From assembly GCA_949751835.1 (NCBI GenBank), contig CATKHK010000123.1:43980-107979 (forward strand): DNA of 64,000 bases. The letters are read 5' to 3'. Position numbers and translations under genes: made by a program. Source of the DNA: Blepharisma japonicum. Its lineage: Eukaryota; Ciliophora; Heterotrichea; Heterotrichida; Blepharismidae. The notes under the pieces are model-generated. The model worked only from the letters and a program-made list of their open reading frames with translations. It had not been told where the DNA came from and ran no database searches. Below, piece after piece: positions 1-45,778 of the stretch (its first letter is position 1; the number at the start of each line of letters is the position of its first letter).

Positions 1-707
1 TTTAAACCGCTTAAAATGTCTCGTATAATTGAGCTTGCCAATGAATTATCAATTACTTCTTTATGAGTCAATTCAAGTAAATTACTTCCAGAGAAGAACT
101 CATAAACTAAAGACCATTTTTCTTCAGATTCATAAACTTCATGAAGTTTAACGATATTTGGGTGGTCCTAATTTACTCTTACAAGACATTGGAACTTTTG
201 AATTTCCATTAATAATCTTTCTCTATCTTGTTTCTGGATTGCAGACTTTTTAACCTCTTTTATAACCTTTTTAAGACTAGTTCTGTTATCATTTGCTATT
301 AAAGTATCTCCATGAAATGCTGAATGCAGAATTCTTATGGTTGTAAACCTTTCTTCAACAGGATTTTTTAAAAAAATTTTGGAAAAGTCTTTATTAAATC
401 TAGGGCTTCGAGGACTTCGAGGACTTCTAGGGCTTCGAGGGCTTCGCGGGCTGCGATCAGAAGATGTTATTGGGTCTATCATTAAAGATGATGACCTGAA
501 GGATTCTTTTGGAGATGCTGAAGTTGAATTTCATTCTTCAGAACGTTGAACTAACAGCTGCGGTGAGGGCTTCTTTTTATGGCTCACTCGAGGCGTTTGA
601 GGAGCAAACGATGTTTTGTCGAATTCCGATTTTAATGATTCAGTTGTCTTCTCAGATTGACTCTTTTCGCTTGGTGAGTCCGACCGTTTGGAACAGCAAC
701 AGCCCAT
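1..707 (-). CDS. Pseudo-CDPK copy 1 (C-terminal part outside window)
   Basis: N-terminal part of a calcium-dependent-protein-kinase-like protein; it runs off the left edge within kinase subdomain VIa. The start is set at the ATG giving MGCCCSKRSD, a motif for N-myristoylation at Gly2 and S-acylation at the following cysteines, shared by all six paralogs in the array. An in-frame TGA (read as Trp, EEWNSTS) lies in the disordered N-terminal tail, followed by a Ser-Pro-Arg repeat. The kinase N-lobe follows; the Gly-rich loop is degenerate (LHSAFHGD) but the VIK lysine is kept. A 15-nt intron (168-182) sits just before the DHPNIVKL segment, as in every other copy. The catalytic loop is not in the window, so loss of catalysis in this copy is inferred from its paralogs. 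Confidence 0.85.
399..452 (-). repeat. Six 9-nt repeats encoding Ser-Pro-Arg
   Basis: Six consecutive SPR triplets are encoded by near-identical 9-nt units (AGC/AGT-CCN-AGA/CGA) in the linker between the acylated N-terminus and the kinase domain of pseudo-CDPK copy 1. The other copies have no comparable repeat at this place, so it is a recent local expansion. Such basic SP repeats are possible targets of proline-directed kinases; that is inference. Confidence 0.9.
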
Positions 708-1367
708 TTCTATATTTAAAATGGAGAATTGTTGAAATTATCTCCAAAAAAATCAGTAAAAATTTTCAACAAATTAAGTTTTAGCGCTCTTAGAAAGAAT
801 AAACAAAAAATTAGAAATTTCATAACACTCATATTAATAAAATGAATAACTATGTATGAAAATATTTCTTTCAATAGAGATTTGCCTGGCCTTTGAATTT
901 CTAAATAAATTTCACATAAATCAATCTTGAAATTTCTGCTATAAAAACGAGCTTGCCAATAAGCGAGGGATTGATATCAATTGATATGAATTTTTATAAT
1001 TTTCCCATTGAAAACTTATTTTCATATAATTTGAATAATAATTATCAAGTTGCCATTTTAAAATATTATTAAGAGAGCATTCAACTCTATTCTTGTATGG
1101 ATTACTGAAAATGCATTTCAATAAATTTATAATGAATTGCTTCTAGTTTAATTGATATACATATACATAATACTAAACTAAGATAAAAATTAGCTATACT
1201 TGAAATCATGCTCATCAATGCATTATGGGTACTAATTATTCCCCCCGCAAAGGGAGAGCTTTTTTAAATTTTTATATAAAAGATTTCATTTGTTCTTTAA
1301 GATTTCCAAAAATCCCAATTTTCAAAGTAAAATTTATCCAATTATAAATTTCTTGCCTATTTATTAA
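708..1367. other. AT-rich intergenic region with array-shared flank
   Basis: No convincing gene. The stretch around 940-1160 resembles parts of the intergenic regions at about 4500-4680 and 10180-10350 (for example the shared segment close to GCATTT-AATAAAT-TATAATGAA), so it is part of the duplicated array unit rather than unique DNA. Confidence 0.5.
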
Positions 1368-2354
1368 ATGGATATTCAACAACAAATTTTTCAACTCTTT
1401 TCAAACCCTAAAACTACCTTATCATTATATTTAGCTATCGAGCTAAATATTATTAAAAATTTGTCAGTTCCAAAACTTACAGCAGAATTATTAGAAATTA
1501 TATCAATTCCTCTAGAGAAATTGCAAAGTCTCTTAGAAATCCTTAGCTCTCTTAGAATCCTATCAATTGATGAACAAAATCAATGGGCCAATACACTTTT
1601 ATCTTCTTTATTTATCAATGAAAATTTACAAAATATTACAAGACAAGTAATTAATCCTTTAAATTATGAATTTGAAGCTTGCTTAGAAGACTTATTGAGC
1701 AATAGCATAACTTTAATAAACCAAAAATATGGAATTTCAATGCATGAAGAGTTTATTAAAATTCCTGATCATATATCAGCATTATTCAATGCAGGAAAAG
1801 AAGCTTCTACATTATATCCTCAACCTCTCCAATTTTCAGCTATCGATCTTAGCAGCTGCAGAAGGGTTTTAAGCATAGGCGGAGGTAACAGCAACACTTT
1901 AATACACCTTTGCTTTTTAAATCCTCATATATCAGGAACAATTTTTGATGACGAATCCCAATGTGATGCTGCACAAATAAATATTCAAAAAAGTAATCTT
2001 CGAGAGAAAATAGACACCATGAATGGGACATTTTTAGAGCCATTTCCAGAGGATTATGACTGCATCATAATAGAGAATTTTTTGAAAAATTCTGAACGGA
2101 TTTGTAAGAAAATATTAGGAAATTGTAGAATGTCATTAAATCCAGGGGATCTTTTAAAGATTATTGATTATGTTATAGTTGAATCTAGCCCTTTATGGGA
2201 TTTTACGAAATCATTAAAATTGGATATATCAGCTCTTGGACTCAAAGAGATAACACAACAGCATGTTGAAAATTACCTTTATGAGGCTGGATTTAGATTT
2301 GATAGGATTATTTCTATAGGAGAAAATTTCTTAATAAATGCAACCGCAATCTAA
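1368..2354 (+). CDS. O-methyltransferase-like protein (ASMT/COMT fold), probably degenerate
   Basis: A 328-residue protein with the layout of plant/animal small-molecule O-methyltransferases: an N-terminal helical winged-helix dimerisation region (about 1-110), then a SAM-binding Rossmann domain with the glycine motif VLSIGGGNSNT (about 165-175), an acidic residue pair after the second strand (IFDDE), and a C-terminal GF segment (YEAGFRFDRI) typical of this family. In known members a conserved His-Asp of the catalytic loop lies in the motif H-D-W; here the matching region reads IIIENFLKNSE, so the catalytic histidine seems absent. It sits in opposite orientation between pseudo-CDPK copies 1 and 2, and a decayed copy lies at 10453-10950. 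Substrate unknown. Confidence 0.65.
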   Translation: MDIQQQIFQLFSNPKTTLSLYLAIELNIIKNLSVPKLTAELLEIISIPLEKLQSLLEILSSLRILSIDEQNQWANTLLSSLFINENLQNITRQVINPLNYEFEACLEDLLSNSITLINQKYGISMHEEFIKIPDHISALFNAGKEASTLYPQPLQFSAIDLSSCRRVLSIGGGNSNTLIHLCFLNPHISGTIFDDESQCDAAQINIQKSNLREKIDTMNGTFLEPFPEDYDCIIIENFLKNSERICKKILGNCRMSLNPGDLLKIIDYVIVESSPLWDFTKSLKLDISALGLKEITQQHVENYLYEAGFRFDRIISIGENFLINATAI

Positions 2355-2573
2355 GAAAAATTTATATTATTTACAAAATAAAATTTAATTTTTAAAGATT
2401 AGGGGATATATCTGTAATGCCCTTTATTAAGACTTTAAAGTATATTTACCGACTGAGCTATTGAATTAAAATCACATTTGAAAGAAGTTATAGTCTAAAA
2501 TAATTTTTAACATTATTTTAAATAAAATAAAAGTACTTATAATTTTTAAACGATTGATATTAGATTAAAATAA

Positions 2574-4247
2574 CTATGCTTGATTCTTAGTAGTGTAATT
2601 ATCGCCAAATAGGAAATTTTTAAGCTTTTCAAAAGATATTGTTCCTGAGGGATCAACATGAATATTTTCAAAGAACTCAGCCCACTCGCTAGCTCTAATC
2701 CCTTTAATGCTAGCTTTTAGCTCTTTAAGACTTAACTGTCCATCTCCACTTTTATTCCAAAGCTTAAACGCTTTTTCAAATTTTTTTATGTTTTCATCAG
2801 TATTTCAGTCTGTGCAAGCTGTCGCAAATTCTGAAAACTCGATATATCCTTTTTTCATAAGATCTGCACTCTTTAAAATTTTCTTTAGCTTATTTTGGAC
2901 TTTAATATCTAAATTTTGAGTTTCGTTTATTAGCTCTCTCTTAGTGATCTGTCCATCTTTATTAGTATCCAAACTTTTAAAAATGTCTATGAACTCGCGA
3001 TTATCATTTTGTTCTGCAAGGTTGACTTTGAAAAATGAAAAAAAGGCCTTTGCAAATTTGTCTTTGGATGTAAATTCTACAAGCCGGTTGATTGCTTCAT
3101 TATTGGCTGAGTTTGAAAGCAATGATTGATTATTTTTGACCCATGGATGATTCAATGCTTCCTTAATACTAATTCTTTTATCGTAGTCAAACTCAAGCAT
3201 TTTGATAAGCAAATCCTTCAATTCACTTGAGTCAAGCAGCCAATCTGATTCTTCATAAATAATCCCTCTCTTATAATCATTGAGAAGAGCTTCCCTGCTT
3301 TTTCCATGAAATGGAAGCTTTCCTTGGATCATTGAATATAAAATGACTCCAGCGCTCCAAATATCACTAGCAAACTTATTATAAATTCCATATAAGATTT
3401 CAGGAGCCATAAAGCATGTCTATATGAAATTTACCACTTCATTTATTTTAATTTGATCTTCCAGCTCTCAAGGAAAAGTAAACCCAGTAATTTTGCAATT
3501 ATTCTTTCCTTCGCTTGAATCTAAAATAATTTTTTCGAGATTCAACCCAAGATGGCAAGTTCTGTTCCTATGGCAATAATTTAAACTGCTTAAAATATCT
3601 CGGATTATGGCTGACGCTAATTTGCTTCCAATGCTTCCATTATTAATCTTATCGAGTAAATTGTTTCCAAGCAGGTACTCATAAACTAAGGACCATTTTT
3701 CTCCTGATTCATAGACTTCATGAAGCTTAACAATATTTGGATGATCCTAATTTATTCTTACAAGGGATAAAAATCTTTGAATTTTTATTATTAATTGTTT
3801 TTGAGAATTTTTCTGAATTGCTGATTTTTTGATCTCTTTTATGGCCCTTTTAATACTAGTTCTTTTATCGTTTACTAATAAAATATCGCCATAAAATCCT
3901 AAATGCAATTTCCTGATTGTGGTAAAATTTTCTTCAACTGGTGTTTTTAAAATTAGCTCAGATAAATCTATACTATGTTGGCTATTTGAGGGGGTGGGTC
4001 GAGAACCCTTTATTGAGACTGTTTTTAAAAACGATGGCCTCGATAAAGTTTTTGAAGATGAAGAACCCGAAGATAAATCCCCAGTGTCTTGACTTGAGAG
4101 CCGTGGCAAGCGCTTTTTTTTATTTCTTTCTTCAGGATTTTCTGAATTAAGTGCTTTCTTGTCGATTTCTAACCTCAATGATTTTGTTGAAGTATATCCT
4201 TTATTTTTTTCACTAAGGTCTGACCTTTTAGAATAGCAGCAGCCCAT
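2574..4247 (-). CDS. Pseudo-CDPK copy 2 (myristoylated, EF-hand pseudokinase)
   Basis: Spliced length 547 aa; two 15-nt introns (3747-3761 and 3420-3434), both in phase 0. N-terminus MGCCYSKRSD predicts N-myristoylation and palmitoylation. The kinase domain keeps the VAIK-type lysine (RAIKEIKK), DHPNIVKLHEVYE and the APE motif (TCFMAPEIL), but the catalytic loop reads CHLGLNLEKIIL where active CDPKs have HRDLKPENILL, and the DFG motif is TGFTFP. Catalytic Asp, the loop Lys and Asn, and the metal-binding Asp are therefore all missing. The calmodulin-like domain has EF1 canonical (DTNKDGQITKRE), EF2 degenerate, EF3 with Asn at position 1, EF4 with His at position 1 and Lys at position 12. TGA codons are read as Trp at several family-conserved positions (HPW, DIW, TDW). 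Stop is TAG. Confidence 0.9.
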
Positions 4248-4717
4248 TTCTTTTTTTAATAGGGAAAGCCTCGAAATTAATCAAATAAAAAAAAAACAGT
4301 CAAAAATTGATAAAATAAAAGTAAAGTGGTTTTAAAAAGAATTCACACAAAATATAAATCTTATATGATTTATTACAAAAAACAGAAAATTAATTTGTTG
4401 AAAATAATATTTTTACAATTGAGATAATATTATTTTTGAAATTTTAAAAATATTATATATAAAATTCTCATAGCAATAATTTTAGAAAAAGAATAATAAT
4501 AATAAGTTTACCAAGCCTAATAATTGAGCGATTAACACCAACTGATTGCAATTTTTATGTTAGTAAGAAATTCATTTATTATAGCAATTGGCATTTTGGC
4601 TGCATTTTAATAAATCTAATATGAAGCTTAATGCAATTTTAATTAATCAACAATAATTATTTTAATTGATCTTCAATGAAGCTTTTGTAATGCACCTCTG
4701 AATATTAATAGTTAGGA

Positions 4718-4741
4718 TAAGCTCTTAGGATCAAGAGCTTA
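4718..4741. repeat. Perfect 9-bp inverted repeat
   Basis: TAAGCTCTT and AAGAGCTTA flank a 6-nt loop (AGGATC). It overlaps the stop codon of the possible small gene at 4739-4936. It could be a transcript 3' hairpin; no function can be shown. Confidence 0.6.
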
Positions 4742-4936
4742 AAAATAAATTTCTAGAAAATATCTTTGATAGACTTGATCAATAATTCATTTTTTGACTT
4801 CTATTGGGCTGTGTGAAGAATTATTTTTATTCAATTCTAACATCAACTTTATTTGGCTCTTTAAACTTGCAGGTTTAGCTTTTAGAGCAGCAGTAAGCCA
4901 TTTCTTTGCTTCAAAAGTATTTTTATAATATGGCAT
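4739..4936 (-). CDS. Small hypothetical protein, 65 aa
   Basis: Open from ATG (MPYYKNTFEAKKW...) to TAA with one TGA read as Trp near the end (EVKKW). The segment FEAKKWLTAALKAKP is helix-like and resembles a single TPR-type helix pair, but no family can be named. It lies in the AT-rich spacer between pseudo-CDPK copies 2 and 3, a region that also holds decayed gene pieces, so this may be a remnant rather than a working gene. Confidence 0.3.
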
Positions 4937-5267
4937 AAAAAACCCTTTTTTTAAGAGATTGATATTAAGATTCAAGCAATTTTTGGAAAAGCAAAGATTT
5001 TAACTTCTTCTTTGCTGTCTTAATTTTTAAAATTTACATATAAGCTAAAATCTGACCTATATTAGTCAATTTTATAAATTTTTAGGCTCATAGAAATTCT
5101 TCAGTAAAGTATAGAGTTTTCAATTTACTAATCAATTATAACTTGATATAACAATGCAGATTTGTAGAAAAAAACTTTAGCTGCAAGCTAAAAACAAAAT
5201 TTTGAAGAGTGATGAGGATTAGCTGCCAGCAAGTAATTAGAGATTTTGACTTTTATTTAATAAAATA

Positions 5268-5420
5268 GAAAACTGGAAACCTATTTTCTTTACTCCTAGC
5301 GGAATTTAGCTGAATACAGATGACATGAGCCATAAAAATTGTTTTTCTTCTAAGAATTTGCAGTTTAGTCTTATTTACACATTTTGAGATCTCTCCAATG
5401 GATCTTAAGATTTAACTCTC
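5268..5420 (-). pseudogene. Short remnant of DHHC S-acyltransferase gene
   Basis: About 150 bp that align by eye with the intact DHHC gene around 18085-18270: shared blocks include AAACTGGAAACCT / AAACAGGAAACCT, GAGCTGAACACAGATGACATGA-type sequence (here AGCTGAATACAGATGACATG), and TTACACA-TTT...GAGATCTC. The DHHC motif itself is not readable. It shows that the transferase gene once lay upstream of copy 2 as it now does upstream of copy 6. Confidence 0.6.
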
Positions 5421-5576
5421 ATTCCACTTTATCTAAAACTTAACGCTTTTCTTATATATTTATATTTTCATCAGTATTGAGCCTAAGAATACAGTAAAGA
5501 ATTCTCCATAGTCTATCCATTTAATTTTCAGAAAAAATCTTATAATTTTTACAATATTGACGTTAGCTTAAGATAA

Positions 5577-7252
5577 CTATGCACGATTCTTTTTCATCCA
5601 ATCTTCTCCGAACAAAAATGTTTTGAGTTCTTCAAACGAGATCGTTCCTGACTGATCACAATCAACATTTCCAAAGAATTCTGCCCATTCTTCAGCTTTT
5701 ATGCCTCCAATATTTGCTTTTAACTCTTCAAGACTTAATTGGCCATCTCCACTTTCATCACAAAGCTTAAATGCTTTTTCGAGTTTTTTTATATTTTTAT
5801 CAGTATTTCATTCTGTGCACGCTGTTACAAATTCTGAAAATCCAATATATCCTTTTTTCATAAGTTCATTGTTCTTTAGAATTTTCTGAAGCTTTTCTTG
5901 AACTTCAATATCTAAATTTTTAGTTCCACTTAAGAGCTCTTCCATAGTGATTTGTCCATCTTTATTAATATCCAAACTTTTAAAAATATCTATAAACTCT
6001 CTATTTTCGTTTTGGTCTGCAAGATTGACCTTAAAAAATGAAAAAAGTGCTTTTGCAATTTTGTCTTTAGAGGTAAACTCTATAAGGTTGGTGATTGCTT
6101 TATTATTAGTAGGAGATGAGAGTAAATAATTGCTATTTTTTATTCATGGGTGATTCAATGCGTCCTTAACAGTAATTCTTTTATTGCAGTCAAATTCAAG
6201 CATTCTAATAAGTAAGTCTTTCAATTCATTTGAGTCAAAAATCCATTCCGAATCTTCAAAAAAAGCCCAGCTTTATACTCCTTTAGAAGATCCTCAGAAT
6301 TTTTCCCTCTAAATGGAGGCTTTTCTTTAATAATTAAATATAAAATGACTCCAACGCTTCAAATATCACTAGCAGGATTATTATAAACCCCACTGAGTAT
6401 TTCAGGAGCCATAAAGCATGTCTATATAGAATTTACCACTTTATTATATTTCACTAAGCCTTTTAACTCTCAAGGATAGGAAAAGCCAATAATTTTACAA
6501 TTAATTTTCCCATCTTTTGAATCCAATATAATTTTTTCAAGATTTAGCCCTAAATGTAAAATTCCATTATTATGGCAATAATTTAAACCGCTTAAAATAT
6601 CTCGCATTACTGAGCTTGTTAGCGAATACCCAATAATTTCATTTTGAGCTATCTCAAGCAAATTACTTCCAAAGAAACACTCATAGACCAAACACCATTT
6701 TTCTTCTGATTCGTATACTTCGTGAAGCTTAACTACATTTGGGTGATCCTAATTTATTCTTACAAACCATTGGAATTTTTGGGCTTCCATTATTAATATT
6801 TCCTCCTCTTTTTTTTGGATTGCTGATTTTTTTACCTCTTTTATAACCTTTTTCAAGCTAGTTCTTTTATCATTTGCTAATAAAGTATTTCCATGGAATG
6901 CTGACCGCAATATTTTTATCGTTTTAAAATTTTCTTCAACGGGAGTTTTTAATATTTTCTTCAAAAAATTATCATTAAAATGACTATTGGGTGAGTCAGG
7001 ATGATAACCTTTTGTTGAAGCTGATTTTATAGATAATAGTCTGGATGAGGTTCTTGAAGATGAAGTGTTTATAGTTAAACTCTCAGAGCGCTTCTTTGAT
7101 ACCCGAGATTTGTGTTTGTTTCCTTGTCTCATTTGAGGTGCGTCTGGGACAAACTCAGTATTATTGATTTCTGACCTCAATGACTCAGTTGAAGCTTCAA
7201 ATTGACCCTTTTCACTTGAAGGATCAGGTCTTTTAGAACAGCAGCAGCCCAT
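5577..7252 (-). CDS. Pseudo-CDPK copy 3 with a one-base frameshift
   Basis: Same layout as the other copies: MGCCCSKRPD acylation motif, degenerate Gly loop (LRSAFHGN), kept lysine (KVIKEVKK), HLGLNLEKIIL in place of HRDLKPEN, GFSYP in place of DFG, APE kept (TCFMAPEIL), then EF1, EF3 and EF4 with canonical loops (DINKDGQITMEE, DESGDGQLSLEE, DCDQSGTISFEE). Introns of 15 nt lie at 6749-6763 and 6422-6436. After splicing the length is 1646 nt, one short of a multiple of three. The missing base maps to an A7 run at 6258-6264 (T7 on the coding strand), where copy 2 has nine nucleotides and this copy eight. This is either a homopolymer sequencing error or a true inactivating deletion. Confidence 0.85.
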
Positions 7253-7660
7253 TTAAATAATGCTTCAAATATCAAATTTGTGGAAATTAAGAACATAAAA
7301 AAATGCAAAAAATTCAGAGGGTTATATTTACATTTTAAAAGAAAATACTTGAAATATAAGCTTTATAGGTATCTTAATGGAAATAATAATTTTTTCCACT
7401 TGAGATTGGCTTGGAATTTTTAAAAAAATTTTAGTAATAAATTAAGAAATTTTTGCAGTAAATATAAATCTGCTAAAAATAATAATTGAGTAATTGGTAA
7501 TTTTGTTTTATTACATCCGTATTGAAAATAATTATATTTATTGATTTGAGCAATATTTATCAATTTGACATATTAGCTGGTCATTTTGATAGCCGTTAAT
7601 TCTTCGCTTATATAGTGGGGTAAAAATATTTTTTGAATAAATCTATAATGAAGCTTTATA

Positions 7661-7886
7661 TCCAGTTATGGCAGGGAAACAAGAGCTCATGATGAACAGC
7701 ATCAAGTTCTGTAATTATGAGCTCCATCCTTTAGGTGGTGGAAACCAGCTTATATGTGTGTGCTTAATGGAGGCATGCTGATTCTCGTAGACAACCGTAG
7801 AAATCTGAACACATAAGTAGAGGCCATCAATAAAGGGCAAAACCTTGCGGAGGAGGTCACTAAAGCAAGGACATAAACCTTAAGGA
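7661..7886. ncRNA. Candidate structured RNA, unknown class and strand
   Basis: An island clearly richer in G+C than the surrounding AT-rich spacer. It can form several stems: GAGCTCAT with ATGAGCTC (8 bp, closing a 26-nt region), TGGT-GGAA-ACCA, CTTAT(AT)GTGT with ACACATAAG, and CCTTGC with GCAAGG. A TGATGA and a CTGA further on recall box C and D of snoRNAs, but spacing and terminal stem are not convincing. I tested it by eye against U1, U2, U3, U4, U5, SRP, RNase P/MRP and telomerase RNA motifs and could not match any. A 39-codon open frame also starts at ATGGCAGGG (7666). It may be an ncRNA or a remnant of other DNA. Confidence 0.35.
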
Positions 7887-8285
7887 GAATTATCTATTAA
7901 ATCAAGTTTAAATTTGCTTATTCATGATAAGCACTATATTTTAAGAAAATTAATTAAGCAGCATTTTAACTTTGTTAAAAGAAAAAAATTTTACAGCATC
8001 ATAGATATTTATTCTCTTTTAAATTTGCTATACTTAATTTGAGAATTAAAAACATTTTTTGTTTATTTTCAACATTTTTCAAGAAATCAAATTATGCATA
8101 ATTAAGATATTTAAATTATATTTTTAAAATTGCTTTAATTTTCAAATTCATTTCAAGAGCATCATGATAAAAGAGCAGCTTTCAAATTATACACTTTTGA
8201 TTTTATTTAATATCTCATAAAGACTAAGAATTTTTTTATTTATATTCTTATATTAGACATCTTTTCAAGGCGCCAAAAGGATGCC

Positions 8286-9973
8286 CTATGCGTGATTCCT
8301 AATATTACAATTTTCACCAAATAAAAATTTTTTGAGTTCTTCAAAAGATATTGTTCCTGACTGGTCATCATCAACTCTCCCAAAGAAATTAGCCCATTCT
8401 TCAGCACTAATACCAGATATATTTTCTTTTAGCTCTTTAAGACTTAGCTGTCCATCTCCGCTTTTATCACAAAGCTTAAACGCTTTTTCGAATTTTTTTA
8501 TGTTTTCATCAGTATTTCAGTCTGTGCAAGCAGTCACAAATTCTGAAAATTCGATAAATCCTTTTTTCATAAGATCTGCATTCTTCAGAATTCTTTTAAG
8601 CCTATTTTGGACTTTCTTATCTAAATTTTTAGTTTCGTTTAAAAGTTCTTCTTTAGTGATTTGACCATCTTGATTGCTATCCAAACTCTTAAAAATTTCT
8701 ATAAACTGGCGAATTTCATTTTGGGCTACAAAATTCACTTTGAAAAATGAAAAAAGGGCCCTTGCAATTTTGTCTTTAGAAGAATAGTCTATTAGGCGGT
8801 TGATTGCTCCATTATTGTCTGATGTTGAAAGTAAAGATTGATTATTTTTTATTCATGGGTGATTCAGTGCATCTTCAGCAGTAATTCTTTTATTGTGGTC
8901 AAACTCAAGCATTTTGCTAAGTAAATCTTTCAGCTCATTTGAGTCAAAAATCCAATTAGTTTCTTCAAAATTAATCTTTCTTTCATAGTCCTTTAGAAGG
9001 TCCATCCAATTTTCCCCTCGAAATGGAAACTTTCCTTGGATAATTAAATATAAAATAACTCCTGAACTCCAAATATCACTAGCAGGATTATTATAAATTC
9101 CATTGAATATTTCAGGAGCTATATAGCATGTCTATATATAATTTACTGGTTCATTTTTATCTTCTAACTCTCAAGGATAGGAGAATCCAATTATTTTGCA
9201 ATTAAACTTTCCATTAGTATTAAGATACAATTATGCATCCCATCATTTGAATCTAAAATAACTTTTTCAAGGTTTAGGCCTAAATGCGCAACTCTGTTCC
9301 TATGACAATAATTTAAGCCACTTAAAATATCTCTCATGATGGTTTGTGCTAAAGCACTTCCAATAATTTCATTATTAAATTTATGAAGTAAACTGTTTCC
9401 AATCAGATGCTCATAAACAAAAGACCACTTTTTTTTTGACTCATAGACTTCATGAAGCTTTACTATATTTGGATGATCCTAATTTACGCTTACAAGACAT
9501 AGAAACTTTTGAATTTCCAGTATTAGTTTATCCTTCTCTTTTTCTTGAATTATTGATTTTATTACCTCTTTTATAACCTTTTTAAGACCAGTTCTTCGAT
9601 CAGTAACTATTAAAGTGTCTCCATAATTTCCAGAATGCAATTTTCGGATCGTTGTAAAGTTTTCTCCAACAGAAATATTTAAAATTTGCTCGGAAAAGTT
9701 TTTATTAATTTGACTACTTGGCGGATTGGGAATCGAAGTCTTTGTTGATGAAGAATTTGAAGATGATATTAAGGATAGAGTGTTTGGAGATGAAGAGCTG
9801 AATGATAATCTTTTAGTCCGTAGCTTTGATATTCGTCTTTTTTTATGCTTTGTTCGAGATAGTTCTTGAGCAATTACTTTCTTGGCCATTTCTAGCTTCA
9901 ATGATTCGGCTGAAGCGTTTGATTTACCCTGCTCACTTGTAGGGTCAGGCCTTTTAGAATAGCAGCAACCCAT
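8286..9973 (-). pseudogene. Pseudo-CDPK copy 4 interrupted by a 29-nt insertion
   Basis: MGCCYSKRPD start, Gly loop LHSGNYGD, lysine kept (KVIKEV), HLGLNLEKVIL in place of HRDLKPEN, GFSYP in place of DFG, and EF-hands 1, 3 and 4 intact (DSNQDGQITKEE, DKSGDGQLSLKE, DDDQSGTISFEE). Introns of 15 nt lie at 9479-9493 and 9132-9146. Between the catalytic loop and the DFG-like motif there are 29 extra bases (9211-9239) flanked by CCAT on both sides; these shift the frame and create a TAA. Removing 29 nt, or a 17-nt segment between two TA dinucleotides (9215-9231), restores the frame. As read, the gene is broken in the C-lobe. Confidence 0.8.
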
Positions 9974-10452
9974 TTATTTTAATAGGAGTTGTTGAAATTA
10001 TGTAACAAAAAATAATTCAATTAAAAACTAAAAGCAAATGATCTTCCAAGAAGATAAGAGAAACATAATTCTTATGGTTTCTAAATCAAAATAATAAATA
10101 ACATTCCTTCTAAATGACATAACTTGATCTTTGAATTGCTTAAAATATCATAAATAAAACTTATATGGCAATCAATTTTAGAAGCTTCAGGTATACAGCA
10201 AGCCTAATTATATCAATTTAGCGATTTTATATCCCATTAGAAATATATTTTAACAATAATTATAAAATTGTTCTTAAATTTAAATACTTTTAATATATTT
10301 GTAATGAAGTGCATTTTAATAAATCTACAGTTAAATTTTAGATTGTCTTTTTCTCTAGTTGATATTAATTATGGTAAAAAATAGTTGTGCTAATCAAGCC
10401 ATTTTCATCACTCATATAATGGCGTGAATTATTTAAGAATATATTCGTTAAA

Positions 10453-10950
10453 CGGATACTAAATAATAAAATTTTCAACTCTTTTAAAAACTCAAATTGC
10501 TTTGATACTTAACAAATCAGCCAACTAAATTAATAGAAATATATTAGTCTGAAATTGACATTAGAACTGTTCAGAATTATATCGATTTCTCTTTAAAAAT
10601 ACGATATTTCCTCGGAATCCCAATATTTATTTGTCAATGATAGTAAACAATGGTAGAGTTAGCATAATTAATTTAATCAGTCTTAAATTTTAAGCACTCA
10701 TATCACAGGGATAATTTTCCTCTACAACCTTGATAATAAATAGCCAAAGCAATAACCTTTAAGAAAAATCGCACCATTTATGCAGAATTTTCAGATTCAT
10801 TTTTTGAGGATTATGACCGAAGTATAGATCTGGTGTGTGATTTTATGAAAAATCAGCTCTAGAGCTTAAAAAAAAATTCAAGAAAATTACCTTTTGAGAA
10901 TAGATTTAGATTTCATGAAAATTTTTTATTGAAAAATTCTTAGCGCATTC
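10453..10950 (+). pseudogene. Decayed copy of the O-methyltransferase-like gene
   Basis: This stretch lines up with the gene at 1368-2354 in order: the first codons (ATTTTTCAACTCTTTT / ATTTTCAACTCTTTT), TATCA-GGAACAATTTTT / TCACAGGGATAATTTTCC, GAGGATTATGAC, and the end segment AATTACCTTT...GATTTAGATTT. Large internal deletions and stops in all frames mean it cannot encode a protein. Its position just upstream of copy 5 mirrors the intact gene relative to copy 1, showing that a larger unit was duplicated. Confidence 0.75.
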
Positions 10951-11333
10951 CTCGTTATCCTCAGAAAACTTCTATTCAAAAAGAATTAATATATGATCAT
11001 TTTAAAAAAAAAACTTTCTATGTGAACAAAAGAATATTTATGTTTGCACACATGCAAAAAGGTAGCAGAGCTGAATATCTACAAAGACATCAAGGAATGG
11101 TAGTTTAAGGGCGAATAGAGGAATATGAGGAAGTAAGAATTTTGGACTGAAAATTCGTTTAATTATTTTAAAATACATTTGGTTCTGCTTTAAGCACCAT
11201 TTGGATAATACCTATCCTACTTATTAATCCTACTTTATAGACTATGAAGAATATAGCAATTCTATTTTTAAATAATCGCCATCAATATTAAAATAAAAAT
11301 AAACCTAAATATTTTATTTATAACACAAGTATT

Positions 11334-13028
11334 TTATTTTAATATTACTGTGCTACATTTTGGGATAATAGGATGTTTGCCAAACAAAAATTCCTTGAGT
11401 TCTTCAAGAGATATTGTCCCTGACCGATCATTGTCAACATTTCCAAAGAACTCAGCCCATTCTTTAGACGTTATTCCTTTAATGCTTGCTTTTAGCTCTT
11501 TTAGACTTAATTGTCCATCACCACTTTTATCGCACAGCTTAAAAGCTTTTTCAAATCTTTTTATGTTTTCATCAGTATTCCAGTCTGTGCAAGCTGTCAA
11601 AAATTCTGAAAATTCTATATACCCTTTTTCCATAAGTTCAGCTCTCTTTAAAATCTTTTTAAGCCTATTTTGGGTTTTGATATCTAGGCTTTCAATTTCG
11701 TTATAGAGCTCTTCCTCACTGATTTGCCCATCTTTATTTTTATCTAATTTTTTAAATATTTCAATAAATTCGCGATGGTCATTTTGGTTTGTAAGATTGA
11801 CTTTAAAATAAGAAAAAAGCTCTCTTGCGATTTTATCTTTAGAAGTAAATTCTACAAGGCGAGTGATTGCTTCATTATTAGAAGGAGTTAGAGCCAAAGA
11901 CTGACTATTTTTTTGAATTCATGGATGATTCAATGCCTCTTCAACAGTAATTCTTGTATTGTGGTCATAGTCGAGCATTTTACTAAGTAGATCTTTCAAC
12001 TCGCTTGAGTGTAAAAATCAATTTTCTTCATTAAAATTAAATCTTTTGCTATACTCTTTCAGAAGATCCTCTGAACATTTCCCTAGAAATGGAGGTTTTC
12101 CTGTTGTCATTGTATATAAAATAACCCCAACGCTTCACATATCACTAGCAGGATTATTATAAACCCCATTGAGTATCTCAGGAGCCATAAAGTATGTCTA
12201 TGTAAAATTTACCACCTCATCTATTTTTACTAAATCTTCTAATTCTCATGGATAAGAAAACCCAATTATTTTGCAATTAATTTTTCCACCTCGCAAGTCC
12301 AAAATAATTTTTTCAAGATTTAACCCTAAATGGGAAATTCTATGTAGATGGCAATAATTTATACCGCTTAAAATGTCTTGTGTTATTGAGCATGCCAATG
12401 ATTTCTCAATAAATTCATTATCAGCTTTATCGAGCAAACTACTTCCAGAGAAGAACTCATAAACCAAATGTCAGCTTTCTCTTGATTCATAGACTTCAAG
12501 AAGCTTAACTACATTTGGATGATCCTAATTTATATTTACCAAGCATTGAAATTTTTGGATTTCCATTATAAATTTTGTATGGATATCTGTTGATATTAAT
12601 GATTTTTTAAATTCTTTAATAACTTTTTTTATGTCGGTTCTTTTATCATTTGCAAGCAAAATATCTCCGTAAAATCCTTTATGTAAATTTTTGACTGTTG
12701 TGTAATTAATTCTAGTCGGAATCTTGAAAAAGCTTTGGGAGAAATCTTCAATGGATAGATTTTTCGGAGAGCTAGCTCGGGATGTCGTTGTAGAGCCTGC
12801 TTTTAGAGTTAAATATCTTGTTCTGCCTCTTGGTGATGAAGGTTGTGAGGATCAATTATTAGTGTGCCTTGTTGAAAGACGTGGTGGACGTTTTGTTCTT
12901 TTCCTTCTCATAGGAACTTCAGGAGATGTAATATCGTTATCAATCTCTGACCTCAGAGACTTAGTCGAAATGCTTGAAAACCCCTTTTCTATTGCTTGAT
13001 CTGATCTTTTTGAGCAGCAGCAACCCAT
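11334..13028 (-). CDS. Pseudo-CDPK copy 5 (myristoylated, EF-hand pseudokinase)
   Basis: Spliced length 554 aa, two 15-nt introns (12525-12539, 12198-12212). The start at 13028 gives MGCCCSKRSD. The basic, Ser/Pro-rich linker (RRKRTKRPPRLSTR) contains one TGA read as Trp (TNNWSSQPSS), which copy 6 shares, so the reading is supported by conservation. Gly loop LHKGFYGD, lysine KVIKEFKK, catalytic loop SHLGLNLEKIIL, DFG replaced by IGFSYP, APE kept (TYFMAPEIL). EF1 (DKNKDGQISEEE), EF3 (DKSGDGQLSLKE) and EF4 (DNDRSGTISLEE) are canonical; EF2 is degenerate. Closest to copy 6 in the array. Predicted Ca2+-binding membrane-anchored pseudokinase. Confidence 0.92.
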
Positions 13029-13536
13029 ATAATATTATTTTGATACTAAAATAGAAAATATCTGCTGAATTGAGAAAATAAAAATTATGCGAAAAATATC
13101 CAGAAAAGCATTCAAAAATGAAGATTTTATAAGAGAAAAAAATTAAGACATTTTGAAAAATATGAAAGACTTTTGGTCAATTTTTCAAACTTAAGATGGA
13201 CTTCATAAAGAATTTTTTTTAAAGATGATCACAAATATAGTAAATTTTAGAGTAATTTTAGACAAATCCTCGTAAGAGTTGATGGAAAAGTAAACAGAGG
13301 TTTGATATACGAACTAATTATAATTTGGCACAAAAGTGCAAATTTGCATGAAAAACTTAGCAACAAACTGAGAAAAAAATTGATGGGTGACAAGGATTAG
13401 CAAAAATTATACAGCTTTTATTTCCCTAATTTCTGACACCTGAAAAATGTATGTTTATTTAAGAAAGTTATTACAAATGGCATTAAAATTTATCTATTCC
13501 TTGGAGCTTAAAATTTGTAATTAATTAGCTAAACAC

Positions 13537-14390
13537 TATAAGCTGGATATTTATCAATGATATTCCAAATCTGGGTTCTGTTTAGTAAGATCATCCTATC
13601 AAAATAAGCCTCTTCGTTCTATAAACAATTTCAATTTTTCTCATGATCCCTTTAATTCTTTCTTTCAGAGTTTCCTTTGCTATGAAAAGAATTATGTGAA
13701 AAATTCACAAAATCAATACAATACAACCATTATCAATGTAGACAACGTAATTATGACAGCCACCTAAATTAGGTTTAAAGAAAAATATTCCAAAAAATCC
13801 ATTTTTACAAATAGAAGTTTTTCTTGGTAGCCCTACAATTATAGGTAGGCTGTTTTCATAAGAGATCGATTGTGGCCTTCTTCTAGATTAAAACATAGGA
13901 AAAACAGGAAACCTGCTTCCTCTTAATCCAAGAGAGATTGAGCGAAACACAGATGGCAATAACCATATGAAATTATGCTTGCCTATATTATTTTCTAAAA
14001 ATTTGCAGGTGTTTAAAGCCTTTTACACAATTTCTGAAATTTATATTTTTCACTTGTTTGTAATGAAGAGATCTCAGAGGCATATAAATTTTGTATATTG
14101 GGTAATGCTTGCATCCTTAATTAGGCCGACTTCAGTGAATTTTTAGTGGCAGCTCCTATTGCTTCCAAAAAGGCTTTAATCCAAGTTCTTTGTGTTATTA
14201 AGACAAAAGTAAGGCATTAAAATAATTGGGAGAATTGGACTTATGATAATCAATAGTTAGGGACAAATAAATATGAAATAAAATATTGATACTTATGCAA
14301 TTAATGCTCAGATACATAGCAGGATTTTGATCTTTCTTTAGGCCTATCATCATTATATAGACTTTTCCGAGAGCTGAGAAATTTTTTCCC
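13537..14390 (-). pseudogene. Decayed full-length copy of the DHHC S-acyltransferase gene
   Basis: Collinear with the intact gene at 17781-18741 over nearly its whole length: the 3' end (CTGGATATTTATCAATGATATTCC versus GTGGATATTCATCAACGATATTCC, shown here as two pieces), ATCCTATCAAAATAAG, CCTTTAATTCTTTC, AAACAGGAAACCTG, CTCCTATTGCTTCC, and ATTGGGAGAATTGG all match in order. Many indels and stops break every frame, including the DHHC region, so it is a pseudogene. It lies upstream of pseudo-CDPK copy 5, as the intact gene lies upstream of copy 6. Confidence 0.85.
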
Positions 14391-14729
14391 TGCAAAATTT
14401 TGGCAAATCCAGAAAAGAAAATTATATAAAATTGGCAAAATTAACAAGAAATCTGAAAATTGGCAAATGTTTAATTTCAGTGAATATTTTTTAAACAGAT
14501 AATAAACAATAAATCTTTTAAAGATTAAATGATATGACTTTACGAATTAACTCACTGAATTTTATTAAAGCTATATCAGTCTCAAAATTTGCATTAATAT
14601 CCTCAATCCTCACATTAAGAAAATCAATCTACTAAAAAAATTTCAGAAAATGGTTCAAAAAATAATCTATTCTTTAAAGCTTAATTTTTACTTATAAACC
14701 TTAAAATATTCATTAATTAACACTATTAA

Positions 14730-15285
14730 ATGTATACTCGCTAAGAATATTCCTTATCTGGGTGCTATTAGTAGCATTATCCTATTAAAATAAGATCTCT
14801 TCTTCCTAAAGCTATTTCTCTTGCTCACTGCGTTGATTCCTTTAATTCCTTATTTTTACTGATTTCTTGTAATGCAAAGCGTCATATGAAAATTGATGCT
14901 TATATTGATTATTAATTAAAATAACGTTATGTTATGGCTATACAAATTAGGGGTTTCTGGAAATATTTCCTGACTCTTTCCACTTTAAGAGATTGCAAGT
15001 TTTTTGTTTGCTCTTAAAAGTGGTGAATTGTTTTTGTAAATTTTATGTTAAAGAATTAAACGAAAAATAGAGGCTTTTCATGGCAATCTTACAAATTGTA
15101 GGTAGGCCTTTATCTACAATAGAATTCGGCGGTAATGTTCTTCGACATTTATAAATAGGAAAAAAATTTTTGTTAATCCTAGCTGAGCATGGGTGGAATG
15201 AACCAATTACAATTACGCTTTTCATGTAGCTGTCTCAAAATCGCAAGTGGCGGTCAAAGTCTTCTACAATTTCTCATTTCATTTT
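14730..15285 (-). pseudogene. Second decayed DHHC S-acyltransferase copy, partial
   Basis: Aligns with the 3' two-thirds of the intact DHHC gene: TAAGATCTCTTCTTCCTA, AATGCAAAGCGTCATATGAAAA, CTATACAAATTA, and GTGGCGGTCAAAGTCTTCTA, the last being the DHHC motif region. The part beyond the motif is missing. Placed head-to-tail after the 13537-14390 copy, so at least two transferase copies were present between pseudo-CDPK copies 5 and 6. Confidence 0.8.
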
Positions 15286-15481
15286 AAAATGTGGCCTAAA
15301 ATTCGATCAATTATTTTAGAATGAAATTTAAGTCTGCATTAATTAAATACCATTAGGAAATAATGCTGTAATTATCCTTCTTGATAAAACTATTTAGTGT
15401 GTAGCAATTATATTTAGAAATATTTATAATCAATATTAATAAAAATTTACATGAAGGTTTTTTATTTAGAATATAAGTATA

Positions 15482-17173
15482 CTATTCTGAGATCGCTATA
15501 CTATATTTTGGACTAATACGATTTTTACCAAACAAAAATTCCTTGAGTTCTTCAAAAGAGATTGTCCCTGATCGATCAAAATCAACACTTCCAAAAAACT
15601 CAGCCCATTCTTTAGATCTTATCCCTTTAATGCTTGCTTTTAGTTCTTTTAGACTTAATTGCCCATCTCCGCTTTTATCGCACAGCTTAAACGCTTTTTC
15701 AAATTTTTTTATGTTTTCATCGGTGTTCCAATCTGTGCAAGCTGTCAAAAATTCTGAAAATTCTATATACCCTTTTTCCATAAGGTCAGAGCGCTTTAAA
15801 ATCCTTTTAAGCCTATTTTGGATTTTGATATCTAGATTTTTAATTTCGCTTAAGAGCTCTTCCTGACTGATTTGTCCATCTTTATTCTTATCTATATTTT
15901 TAAAAAGTTCAATAAATTCGCGATGGTCATTTTGGTTTGTAAGATTGACTTTAAAAAAAGAAAAGAGCTCTCTTGCGATTTTATCTTTAGAAGTAAATTC
16001 TACAAGGCGAGTGATTGCCTCATTATTAAGGGGAGTTGAAGCCGAAGACCGGCTATTTTTTTGAAGTCATGGATGATTCAATACCTCCTCAACAGTAATT
16101 CTTGTATTGTGGTCGTAATTCAACATTTTACTAAGCAAATCTTCTAACTCATTAGAAGCTAAAATCCAATTTTCTTTCTTAAAAGTTCATCCTTTCCTAT
16201 ACTCTTTCAGAAGATCCTCTGAACTTTTTCCTCGAAATGGAAGCTTTCCATGTGTCATTACATATAAAATAACCCCTACGCTTCAAATATCACTAGCAGG
16301 ATTATTATAAACCCCAGTAAGAATTTCAGGAGCCATAAAGCATGTCTACATAAAATTTACCACTTCATTTATTTTCACTAAATCTTCTAATTCTCAAGGA
16401 TAAGAAAACCCAATTATTTTGCAATTAATCTTCTCATTTCTTGAATCCAAAATAATTTTTTCAAGATTTAACCCTAAATGAGGAATTCCATTCCTATGAC
16501 AATAGTTTAAACCGCTTAAAATATCTTCTATTATTGAGCATGCCAACGAATCCCCAATAATTTCATTTGCTTTATCAAGCAAATTACTTCCAGAGAAGAA
16601 TTCATAAACCAAAAGCCAACTTTCTCTTGATTCGCAGACTTCAAGAAGCTTAACTACATTTGGATGATCCTAATTTATATTTACCAGGCCTTGGAATTTT
16701 TGAATATCCATTATAAATTTTTTGTGGACATCTGCTTGTATTATTGATTTTTTAAATTCTTTAATAACTTTTTTAATCTCAGTTCTTTTATCATTTACCA
16801 ACAAAACATCTCCGTAAAATCCTTTGTGAAGCTTCCTGACAGTCGTGTAATTAATTCTAATCGATGTCTTAAAAAAATTTTGGGAAAATTCATTAGAGGA
16901 TAGAATTGACGGAGAGTTTGTGCGAGATGTTTTTGTAGAGGCAGCTTCAAGAGTTTTCAATCCTGCTCTGCCTCTTGGTGATGAAGGCTGCGAAGATCAA
17001 TTATTAATGCGTCCTGTTGAAAGTCGTGGCATCCGTTTTGTTTTTTTCTTTCTTATTGGAACTTCTGGAGTTGTAGTATTACTATCAATTTCTGACTTCA
17101 GAGATCTAGTAGTCATGCTTGAAAAACCCTTTTCTATCGTCGAGTCAAGCCTTTTTGTGCAGCAGCAACCCAT
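15482..17173 (-). CDS. Pseudo-CDPK copy 6 (myristoylated, EF-hand pseudokinase)
   Basis: Spliced length 553 aa, two 15-nt introns (16670-16684, 16346-16360). The start is at 17173 (MGCCCTKRLD), upstream of the first ATG that a standard-code ORF would offer, because a TGA is read as Trp (INNWSSQPSS) as in copy 5. Kinase domain: Gly loop LHKGFYGD, lysine KVIKEFKK, catalytic loop PHLGLNLEKIIL, DFG replaced by IGFSYP, APE kept (TCFMAPEIL), HPW kept. EF1 (DKNKDGQISQEE) and EF3 (DKSGDGQLSLKE) are canonical, EF4 close to canonical (DFDRSGTISFEE), EF2 degenerate (DLMEKGYIEFSE). Directly downstream, in the same orientation, of the intact DHHC transferase gene. Confidence 0.92.
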
Positions 17174-17780: not shown

Positions 17781-18741
17781 TTAAACACTATTAGGTGGAT
17801 ATTCATCAACGATATTCCTAATCTGAGCGCTATTTAGCAGCATCATTCTATCAAAATAAGACCTCTTCTTCCTACAGCAATTTCTCTTATTTTCTGTCTT
17901 TATTCCTTTAATTCTTTCCTTGGTAGATTCTCCTGTAATGCAAAGCGTCATGTGAAAAATGCACAAAATAGATACAAATACAGTGATTATCAATGAAAAC
18001 AGTGTAATTATGACTACTATACAAATTATAGTAGGTCCGTCTTCTATAAGTGATCTTCGGCTGTGATCTTCTCCTACATCATAAAATAGGAAAAACAGGA
18101 AACCTGTTATTTCCGTTACTCCAAGTGAGATTGAGCTGAACACAGATGACATGAACCATCGGTAATTACGCTTGCCTATGCAATTGTCTAGAAATCTGCA
18201 ATGGTGGTCAAAGTCTTCTACACAATTTCCACAATTCCTATTGTTTTACTTACTTGCAATGATGAGATCTCGGAGGTCTATAAATTTTGCATGTTTGGCA
18301 ATACTTGTATCCTCTATTGGGCTGACTTATAAGGACAGCTTCAGTGAATTCTTCAGGAACAGCTCCTATTGCTTCCCAAACAGGCTTCTTAGGTATGATC
18401 CCAGGCTCAGTTGTGGTCGTAAGCCAAATAAAGACAGTCGAGGACAAAAAGCAATACATTGCAATAATTGGGAGAATTGGGCTTATGGTAATCCATAGGT
18501 AGGGACTGATAAATATAAAATAAAATATTGATACTGATCCAAGCAATGCTCAGGTACATAACAGGTATTTTTGATCTTCCTTAGGACCTATCATTATACG
18601 GCCATTGAAGAAAAACCTGTTTTTAGATGGTCAGACTTTTCAGAGAGGGAGGATAATTTCGTGAGAAAGGGTCCAGGGTGACTGAGGTGTTGGAAAAATT
18701 GGACTTGGAGAAGGATAGATTTCTTTATCAGCTATTTCCAT
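17781..18741 (-). CDS. DHHC-type protein S-acyltransferase (palmitoyltransferase)
   Basis: Spliced length 314 aa; one 16-nt intron (18238-18253) inside the cysteine-rich domain, needed to join RSHHCK to NCGNCVEDFDHHC. Start at 18741 (MEIADKEIYPSPSP); two TGA codons are read as Trp in WKVWPSK. Order: cytosolic N-terminus, two hydrophobic spans (about 70-120), TEPGIIPKKP (the DPG-type motif), the zinc-binding cysteine-rich domain with CQTC, RPPRSHHC and the catalytic DHHC, two more spans, then a TTxE-like GESTKE segment and a Cys/Lys-rich tail. DHHC is followed by Arg instead of the usual Pro. All catalytic residues are present, so it should palmitoylate proteins at membranes. Its neighbours, the MGCC pseudokinases, are plausible substrates (inference). 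Confidence 0.93.
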
Positions 18742-44396: not shown

Positions 44397-44960
44397 TTAA
44401 TTTCCCTTGAGCTTTTGAATCCCTTCTGCGACTTTTTTGAATACCAAATCCACGTTAAGAGCAGTTTTCGCCGATGTCTCAAACCATTCCATATTATGTT
44501 CGTTCGCATAAGCTTTTGCGATGTCTTCTCCAACTGTCTTGCTTTCTCTGTCAGCTTTGTTCCCTACTAAATACAGCAAGCAGTCAGGGACCTGTGCCTT
44601 TAAGGTGTTCACCCAGTAATCAACTCTCTCAAAAGATCGTTTGTCACCAACATCATATACAATTACCGCAGCCGCAGCATCTCGGTAATAAAGAGGCATC
44701 AGCGCTCTGAACCTTTCTTGTCCTGCAGTATCCCAAATATCTAGGACTGTGACTTTCCCGTCACCGGTGTCAACTCTGGATTGTAAAAATGCTCCACCGA
44801 TTGTTACTTCATGGGCATCACTGAACTCGCCACGTGTATATCGGACTAAAAGAGAGGATTTCCCGACGCCTGAGTCTCCAAGAAACACGACTTTTGACTC
44901 AACCTTGAGGGTTGAGTTGAGAAGAGACCCATCAGCTCGTTTTTGAGATCTGCAACACAT
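44397..44960 (-). CDS. Rab-like small GTPase without C-terminal cysteines
   Basis: 187 aa, single exon. All G motifs are present: GDSGVGKSS, switch I Thr (HEVTIGGAF), DTAGQER, NKAD and ETSAK, with Rab-type spacing closest to the Rab5/21/22 group. The C-terminus ends ...GIQKLKGN, with no CC, CXC or CAAX box, so it cannot be geranylgeranylated. Instead the protein begins MCCRSQKR, whose cysteines could be S-acylated (inference). It is head-to-tail with a close paralog 149 bp upstream. Confidence 0.92.
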   Translation of the reverse strand: MCCRSQKRADGSLLNSTLKVESKVVFLGDSGVGKSSLLVRYTRGEFSDAHEVTIGGAFLQSRVDTGDGKVTVLDIWDTAGQERFRALMPLYYRDAAAAVIVYDVGDKRSFERVDYWVNTLKAQVPDCLLYLVGNKADRESKTVGEDIAKAYANEHNMEWFETSAKTALNVDLVFKKVAEGIQKLKGN

Positions 44961-45109
44961 AATTCTCTTGTAATTAAAAAATGGTTACATGGGAAATTGA
45001 TAAGATTTATTGATAGTTCGGATTTTATAGAAAAGTACTTAATAGAAAACAAAATTAGTTAATAGGCTTCTTTTCGATAAATATCTTCATTATTTCAGGA
45101 TATATATAG

Positions 45110-45676: not shown

Positions 45677-45778
45677 ATTTATTTAAACTATTACTTAATA
45701 AATTTAGTATGTATTGCTTTATACAGGATTACTTCTGAGAATAGACTTTGGTTAGATATAAATCGGATATTTAATAAT

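What the first reader, a model, noticed from the sequence alone, without database searches (positions are those of the whole stretch)
1..17173. Tandem array of acylated, EF-hand CDPK-like pseudokinases
Six head-to-tail genes share MGCC acylation motifs, two 15-nt introns at the same places, a kinase fold and four EF-hands. In all five copies where the site is visible, the HRDLKPEN loop is HLGLNLEK and the DFG is GFS/GFT, so the catalytic Asp, the loop Lys/Asn and the metal Asp are all gone, while the ATP-site Lys, the APE motif and EF1/EF3/EF4 are mostly kept. Shared loss means catalysis was lost before amplification and the fold has been maintained since. This suggests a family of Ca2+-switched, membrane-anchored scaffolds or competitors of true CDPKs. 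CDPKs and their motifs are established; the role here is inference. I know of no described expanded pseudo-CDPK array of this type.
Basis: partly seen in the sequence, partly recalled or inferred. Interest (0 to 1): 0.85.

Follow-up and report, generated by a model that had tools for sequence, protein, structure and literature searches.

The report
Tandem family of dead calcium-dependent kinases
A ciliate carries a row of six neighbouring genes (one only partly visible, two damaged) for proteins built like membrane-anchored, calcium-controlled kinases but without the residues needed for catalysis, and the pattern of mutations shows that selection has preserved them, even the altered dead loop, which suggests they do a job other than phosphorylation.

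Summary
Window 1-17173 (minus strand) has six head-to-tail CDPK-layout genes (K1 cut by the window edge), from a heterotrich ciliate resembling Blepharisma (TGA=Trp, 15-nt introns). All six start MGCC[C/Y][S/T]KR. In 5 of 5 readable copies HRDLKPEN is HLGLNLEK and DFG is GFS/GFT; VAIK Lys, APE and F-helix Asp remain. EF2 lacks ligands in 5 of 5; K2 also has damaged EF3/EF4.

HLGLNLEK is the only invariant 8-mer of 211 in the kinase domain, while its codons differ synonymously, so gene conversion does not explain it.

New: an intact DHHC S-acyltransferase gene adjoins K6; decayed DHHC, methyltransferase and kinase relics lie between copies: a birth-and-death locus.

Best reading: acylated, Ca2+-sensing pseudokinase scaffolds. 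Function, expression and genome-wide extent are untested; no genome of this organism was held.

The parts
1..707 (-). K1: 5' part of a CDPK-like pseudokinase gene, cut by the window edge before the catalytic loop; intron 182..168; MGCCCSKR; extra (SPR)n stretch
2574..4247 (-). K2: complete CDPK-like pseudokinase (547 aa); introns 3761..3747 and 3434..3420; alphaC Glu is Lys; EF3/EF4 degraded
5577..7252 (-). K3: CDPK-like pseudokinase with a 1-nt frame break at the A-run 6258-6264 (C-lobe); both sides otherwise open; introns 6763..6749 and 6436..6422
8286..9973 (-). K4: CDPK-like pseudokinase with a 29-nt out-of-frame insertion at about 9211-9243, between HLGLNLEK and GFS; introns 9493..9479 and 9146..9132
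11334..13028 (-). K5: complete CDPK-like pseudokinase (554 aa); introns 12539..12525 and 12212..12198
15482..17173 (-). K6: complete CDPK-like pseudokinase (553 aa); introns 16684..16670 and 16360..16346; nearest to K5 (79% aa)
17781..18741 (-). DHHC S-acyltransferase gene (314 aa with one 16-nt intron in my model), just upstream of K6; relics of it lie between the kinase copies
   Evidence: Pfam DHHC on exon 2 E=2e-23; exon 1 alone E=3e-4, below Pfam's cut-off; model
13530..14353 (-). Decayed DHHC relic A (pieces 73 and 77% nt identity, in-frame stops, gaps)
14719..15273 (-). Decayed DHHC relic B (three fragments, 74-79% nt identity)
5260..5333 (-). Small DHHC relic (81% over 79 columns)
5405..5478 (-). 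Relic of a further kinase copy (EF-hand region, 80% over 80 columns with 6 gaps to K2, E=7e-10)
1368..2354 (+). O-methyltransferase-like gene between K1 and K2 (328 aa), open frame; a relic of it lies between K4 and K5
   Evidence: Pfam Methyltransf_2 E=1.6e-12, Dimerisation E=3e-6
10454..10817 (+). Decayed methyltransferase relic (two pieces, 68 and 73% nt identity, E=2.5e-6 each)

Best explanation
A tandem, birth-and-death family of pseudokinases derived from a calcium-dependent protein kinase. Shown by sequence: the full CDPK layout (variable N-terminal region, kinase domain, J-domain, four EF-hand positions), the N-terminal MGCC acylation signature, shared replacement of the catalytic base, loop Lys/Asn and metal Asp, and purifying selection on both the pseudokinase and EF parts. 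Inferred: the proteins are N-myristoylated and S-acylated at a membrane; Ca2+ binding by EF1, EF3 and EF4 (EF2 is dead) moves the J/EF module against the pseudokinase domain; that switch exposes or hides a docking surface, so the protein works as a Ca2+-gated scaffold or decoy for kinases or substrates without phosphorylating. The conserved replacement loop HLGLNLEK suggests that the former active site is part of the useful surface or holds the required conformation.
For: Motif losses in 5 of 5 readable copies and retained structural residues. Homology of K6 to CDPKs over kinase plus EF region, E=4e-71. ML omega 0.232 overall, 0.213 kinase, 0.195 J/EF; omega=1 rejected in all four tests; the free-ratio model gains 1.2 lnL with all seven branches at 0.19-0.28 (five copies, K1 left out). 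HLGLNLEK is the only invariant 8-mer of 211, with synonymous codon changes in Leu, Gly and Asn; mean pS in the loop 0.52, as elsewhere, pN 0.02. Co-duplicated DHHC and methyltransferase copies are decayed while five of five kinase copies that run through the region keep long open frames, two with one break each. An intact DHHC enzyme gene adjoins the array.
Against: K3 and K4 carry frame lesions and a seventh kinase copy is a relic, so kinase copies are lost too. K2 has lost EF4 and part of EF3, so calcium gating is not universal. The AlphaFold2 model from 8 rows was unusable (mean pLDDT 43.7), so ATP-site geometry was not seen. No expression data, no partners, no active CDPK of the same genome for comparison. 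The catalytic loop lies in the kinase core, so its conservation can be structural only; an 8-residue invariant run somewhere in the domain occurs in 1907 of 10000 shuffles, and only the advance choice of this loop gives 0.45^8 = 0.0017.
Confidence: 0.55

Rival explanations
1. A decaying gene array: the kinases are pseudogenes on the way out, and the missing motifs are part of the decay.
For: K3 and K4 have frame breaks; relics of a kinase, DHHC and methyltransferase lie between copies; the K3 branch upstream of its break has the highest omega found, 0.332 against 0.237 (2dlnL 1.13, not significant).
Against: Omega 0.19-0.28 on all seven branches; downstream of their lesions K3 and K4 show 0.211 and 0.228, not different from the rest, and omega=1 is rejected there (2dlnL 20.0 and 20.1). 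K2, K5 and K6 are open over 547-554 codons. The replaced loop is identical in five of five.
Confidence: 0.08
2. Calcium sensors in which the kinase domain is a passive spacer: only the EF-hand half and the lipid anchor matter.
For: J/EF region has the lowest omega (0.195) and the lowest pN of any window (0.062 at residues 463-507).
Against: The kinase domain is under nearly the same constraint (0.213), and its segment from the catalytic loop to APE has the lowest pN in the domain (0.10-0.12); a spacer would drift. K2 keeps the domain while losing EF4.
Confidence: 0.12
3. A non-canonical enzyme: the altered active site (HLGLNLEK, GFSYPWEL) still binds a nucleotide and catalyses something, as some other kinase folds with unusual active sites do (recalled: WNK, SelO, CASK).
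For: VAIK Lys and the last Gly of the Gly-rich loop kept in 6 of 6; the altered loop is invariant; the Glu of PWEL after GF is kept in 5 of 5.
Against: Both metal-binding positions and the base are gone; the first Gly is lost in 6 of 6; the alphaC Glu is Lys in K2.
Confidence: 0.07
4. Pseudokinase adaptor that does not depend on Ca2+: the EF-hands are structural remnants and the protein binds its partner constitutively at the membrane.
For: EF2 dead in 5 of 5, EF3/EF4 degraded in K2.
Against: EF1 ligands intact in 5 of 5 and EF3/EF4 in 4 of 5 (K3-K6); windows covering the EF-hands have pN 0.06-0.16 against pS 0.42-0.55.
Confidence: 0.18

Closest known systems
CDPK / CPK family (apicomplexan TgCDPK1 and others; PDB 5dvr, 3lij)
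   Same: Kinase domain, J-domain and four EF-hand positions in order; 31-33% identity over 421-430 aligned residues for K2-K6
   Different: HRD base, loop Lys/Asn and DFG Asp all replaced; first Gly of the Gly-rich loop replaced; EF2 without ligands
PSKH2, primate CAMK-group pseudokinase (PMC9988210, passages read)
   Same: CAMK-group pseudokinase, labelled with a myristate analogue in a Gly2-dependent way, with a Cys next to it; found in membrane-rich fractions; no autophosphorylation above background
   Different: Single HRD Asp-to-Asn change; C3S did not change its location markedly; no EF-hands mentioned in the passages read. Here all catalytic motifs are changed and the gene is amplified
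CASK pseudokinase domain (PDB 3c0g and others listed)
   Same: CAMK-type fold among the PDB matches to K6; recalled: its DFG is GFG, the same Asp-to-Gly step
   Different: Recalled: CASK keeps HRD and can phosphorylate without Mg2+; no EF-hands
ROP5 cluster of Toxoplasma (recalled; a title seen in a reference list)
   Same: Recalled: a tandem multi-copy pseudokinase locus; the title seen says it regulates the active kinase ROP18
   Different: Recalled: secreted rhoptry kinase family, no EF-hands, no CDPK ancestry
Expanded ciliate CDPK families (PMC3341644, passages read)
   Same: CDPK expansion is reported as prominent in ciliates, and 38 ungrouped Ichthyophthirius kinase-domain genes are called likely pseudokinases
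   Different: No tandem pseudo-CDPK family in the passages read; another ciliate class

Membership tests
CDPK (by descent and layout) | Ser/Thr kinase domain followed by J-domain and C-terminal EF-hands in one chain | tested here: met
   Pfam Pkinase and EF-hand families in K2 and K6; one HMMER stretch 108-534 of K6 to a PDB CDPK; J-domain aligns in 5 of 5
CDPK (active kinase) | HRD Asp, loop Lys and Asn, DFG Asp | tested here: not met
   HLGLNLEK and GF[S/T] in 5 of 5 readable copies
CDPK (active kinase) | Gly-rich loop, VAIK Lys, alphaC Glu | tested here: not met
   Lys kept 6 of 6; first Gly lost 6 of 6; alphaC Glu kept 4 of 6
CDPK | Four Ca2+-binding EF-hands | tested here: not met
   By ligand residues: EF1 intact 5 of 5, EF2 0 of 5, EF3 and EF4 4 of 5; binding itself not testable
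CDPK | N-terminal acylation (in many members, recalled) | tested here: inconclusive
   Sequence motif MGCC[C/Y][S/T]KR in 6 of 6; modification itself not testable
Pseudokinase | Kinase fold lacking one or more catalytic residues | tested here: met
   By sequence; the structure model was unusable
Pseudokinase | No phosphotransfer activity | not testable with these tools
   needs protein
Pseudokinase (functional, not pseudogene) | Purifying selection after loss of catalysis | tested here: met
   omega 0.213 in kinase domain; omega=1 rejected, 2dlnL 164
Blepharisma-type heterotrich gene | UGA=Trp and 15-16 nt introns | tested here: met
   trait of B. stoltei in PMC9942806 (passages). The species was not identified

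The most novel reading that the evidence does not exclude
A ciliate lineage turned a CDPK into a multi-copy class of dually acylated Ca2+-sensing pseudokinases whose replaced catalytic loop (HLGLNLEK) has itself become the selected element: a new non-catalytic active-site function (docking or conformational lock), once duplicated together with its own DHHC acyltransferase, giving a set of Ca2+-gated membrane scaffolds.
Probability: 0.3. Interest if true: 0.72.

Novelty: new variant of a known kind. Interest (0 to 1): 0.5.

Why it matters
The locus gives three intact paralogues of a full CDPK-layout pseudokinase with an internal control: pieces of neighbouring genes duplicated with them have decayed to stops and gaps, while most kinase copies keep long open frames under selection. 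The invariant dead loop makes a direct test possible of whether a former active site can be kept for a non-catalytic job, in a group (ciliates) whose large kinomes are little understood.

Tried and rejected
Relatives: viral contigs gave none (one of 8 scans used). Genome contigs gave one locus, L001, a Parabacteroides contig with a distant kinase-like match (29%, K6 residues 154-317, E=2e-11 among the candidates only); after reading 801 bases of it I set it aside as a separate bacterial kinase-like gene (no further test). Both collections hold viral or prokaryotic sequence, so the misses say little. Hence no tree with active CDPKs of the same organism and no genome-wide count of HLGLNLEK genes.

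Structure: AlphaFold2 on K6 with 7 further rows gave mean pLDDT 43.7 and pTM 0.29; not used, and no fold search was made. One of two jobs used.

Gene conversion as cause of the conserved loop: rejected, because synonymous divergence there (pS 0.52) is like that elsewhere (0.39-0.64 by window). Some mosaicism (K3 near K6 at residues 184-294, 84-89% nt identity) remains possible, and would blur the tree.

Splicing as a way round the K4 lesion: I looked by eye for GT..AG pairs of a length that restores the frame and found none; no tool was run for this. Tree: 3 of 15 topologies were compared, all with K5+K6 together; the K2+K4 grouping was better by 13.5 and 16.3 lnL. K1 was left out of the ML fits because it is partial (5 of 6 copies used), and 12 of 547 K2 codons were dropped for gaps.

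Papers opened for passages without use for the argument: PMC5371900, PMC11174488, PMC3239843, PMC7586955.
Full report
Setting. ARAGORN finds no tRNA in the window; G+C is 27-40% in 2-kb steps. Long frames open when TGA is read as Trp. Within the genes TGA and TGG interchange at aligned Trp positions, for example the Trp of DIWS (TGG in K2 and K4, TGA in K3, K5, K6) and of HPW (TGG in K2, TGA in K3-K6). Introns are 15 nt in the kinase genes, with one of 16 nt in my DHHC model. UGA=Trp with predominantly 15 and 16 bp introns is reported for Blepharisma stoltei (PMC9942806, passages read). I infer a Blepharisma-like heterotrich; the species was not identified, and no whole genome is held.

Genes. 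Six minus-strand copies: K1 (1-707, cut), K2 (2574-4247), K3 (5577-7252), K4 (8286-9973), K5 (11334-13028), K6 (15482-17173). K2, K5 and K6 are open over 547, 554 and 553 codons after removal of two 15-nt introns. K3 is broken by a 1-nt length change at an A-run (6258-6264 on the + strand), K4 by a 29-nt insertion at about 9211-9243, between the catalytic loop and the GFS motif.

Protein. Pfam finds a protein kinase domain (E 1.1e-43 in K2, 5.6e-45 in K6) and EF-hands; only these two copies were scanned. The best PDB matches of K6 are CDPKs, matched over kinase, J-domain and EF region in one stretch (best E=4e-71). Against two of them: the VAIK Lys is kept in 6 of 6; the first Gly of the Gly-rich loop is lost in 6 of 6 and the second in 2 of 6; the alphaC Glu is Glu in 4 of 6, Asp in K6, Lys in K2; HRDLKPEN is HLGLNLEK in 5 of 5; DFG is GFS (4) or GFT (1); APE, the F-helix Asp and the alphaI Arg are kept in 5 of 5. 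EF1 ligands are intact in 5 of 5, EF2 in 0 of 5, EF3 and EF4 in 4 of 5 (K2 degraded). K1 is too short to show these. All six begin MGCC[C/Y][S/T]KR, which by general knowledge fits N-myristoylation with neighbouring S-acylation; not tested.

Selection. Pairwise dN/dS over the shared codons is 0.21-0.34 in all 15 pairs (the five pairs with K1 rest on 215-218 codons). A free-ratio model gains 1.2 lnL and puts all seven branches at 0.19-0.28. Downstream of their lesions K3 and K4 have omega 0.211 and 0.228, not different from the rest; upstream of its lesion the K3 branch is at 0.332 against 0.237, also not significant (2dlnL 1.13). So the lesions are recent or are sequence errors. The N-terminal region is the least constrained: pN/pS reaches 0.92 at residues 31-78.

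The dead loop. Of 211 contiguous 8-residue windows of the kinase domain, HLGLNLEK alone is invariant in all five copies, while its Leu, Gly and Asn codons differ. Loop pN is 0.02 (there is no amino-acid difference; the value comes from path counting at Leu codons) and pS 0.52, as elsewhere. With 45% of kinase-domain columns invariant, this named loop would be invariant by chance at 0.0017; an invariant run of 8 anywhere arises in 1907 of 10000 shuffles. The weight lies on the advance choice of the loop, and structural burial remains an alternative cause.

Neighbourhood. A DHHC S-acyltransferase gene (17781-18741) stands just upstream of K6; exon 2 matches Pfam DHHC at E=2e-23, exon 1 alone only at 3e-4, below Pfam's cut-off; the spliced model keeps the DHHC core. 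Decayed DHHC pieces with in-frame stops and gaps lie at 13530-14353 and 14719-15273, with a fragment at 5260-5333; decayed methyltransferase pieces at 10454-10817 (intact parent 1368-2354); and a kinase relic at 5405-5478. Tally in the window: kinase, three intact, one cut by the edge, two with one frame break, one relic; DHHC, one intact and three relic places; methyltransferase, one intact and one relic. So units larger than the kinase were duplicated, and kinase copies were kept more often than their neighbours. A link between the DHHC enzyme and the MGCC proteins is attractive but only inferred from adjacency.

Mechanism. Shown: CDPK ancestry, catalytic residues replaced alike in all readable copies (most simply, before amplification), later constraint on both halves. 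Inferred: membrane anchoring by acylation, Ca2+ gating through EF1/EF3/EF4, and use of the pseudokinase domain as a docking or competing surface. The nearest worked case found is PSKH2, a CAMK-group pseudokinase reported as Gly2-myristoylated and present in membrane-rich fractions (PMC9988210, passages read).

Novelty. CDPK expansion in ciliates and likely pseudokinases in Ichthyophthirius are in print (PMC3341644, passages read); the Stentor kinome is described as massively expanded (PMC9371601, passages read). Ten open-access searches listed no tandem pseudo-CDPK family by title or start of abstract; one search found no paper at all, and five listings were capped (20 of 29, 15 of 24, 13 of 15, 12 of 46, 12 of 120). 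Supplementary tables and the Stentor kinome preprint were not read. I rate it a new variant of a known kind.

Noticed in passing
44397-44984 and 45110-45682, minus strand: Two adjacent Ras/Rab-like small GTPase genes whose products begin MCC[R/K]S: a second tandem pair with an N-terminal double Cys (frames; family by eye).
   Followed up: no
59136-61319, plus strand: Ankyrin-repeat plus kinase protein with YRDLKPQN and DFG motifs present: an apparently active kinase in the same window, a contrast to the pseudokinases.
   Followed up: partly
K1, about 400-455: Tandem (Ser-Pro-Arg)n stretch in the N-terminal region of K1, absent from the other five copies.
   Followed up: no
K4, about 9211-9243: The 29-nt insertion resembles an imperfect copy of the adjoining coding sequence, as if from a diverged tandem duplication (by eye only).
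   Followed up: no
The 11 introns of K1-K6: Each is 15 nt, a multiple of three, and ends in an in-frame TAG, so intron retention would stop translation.
   Followed up: no
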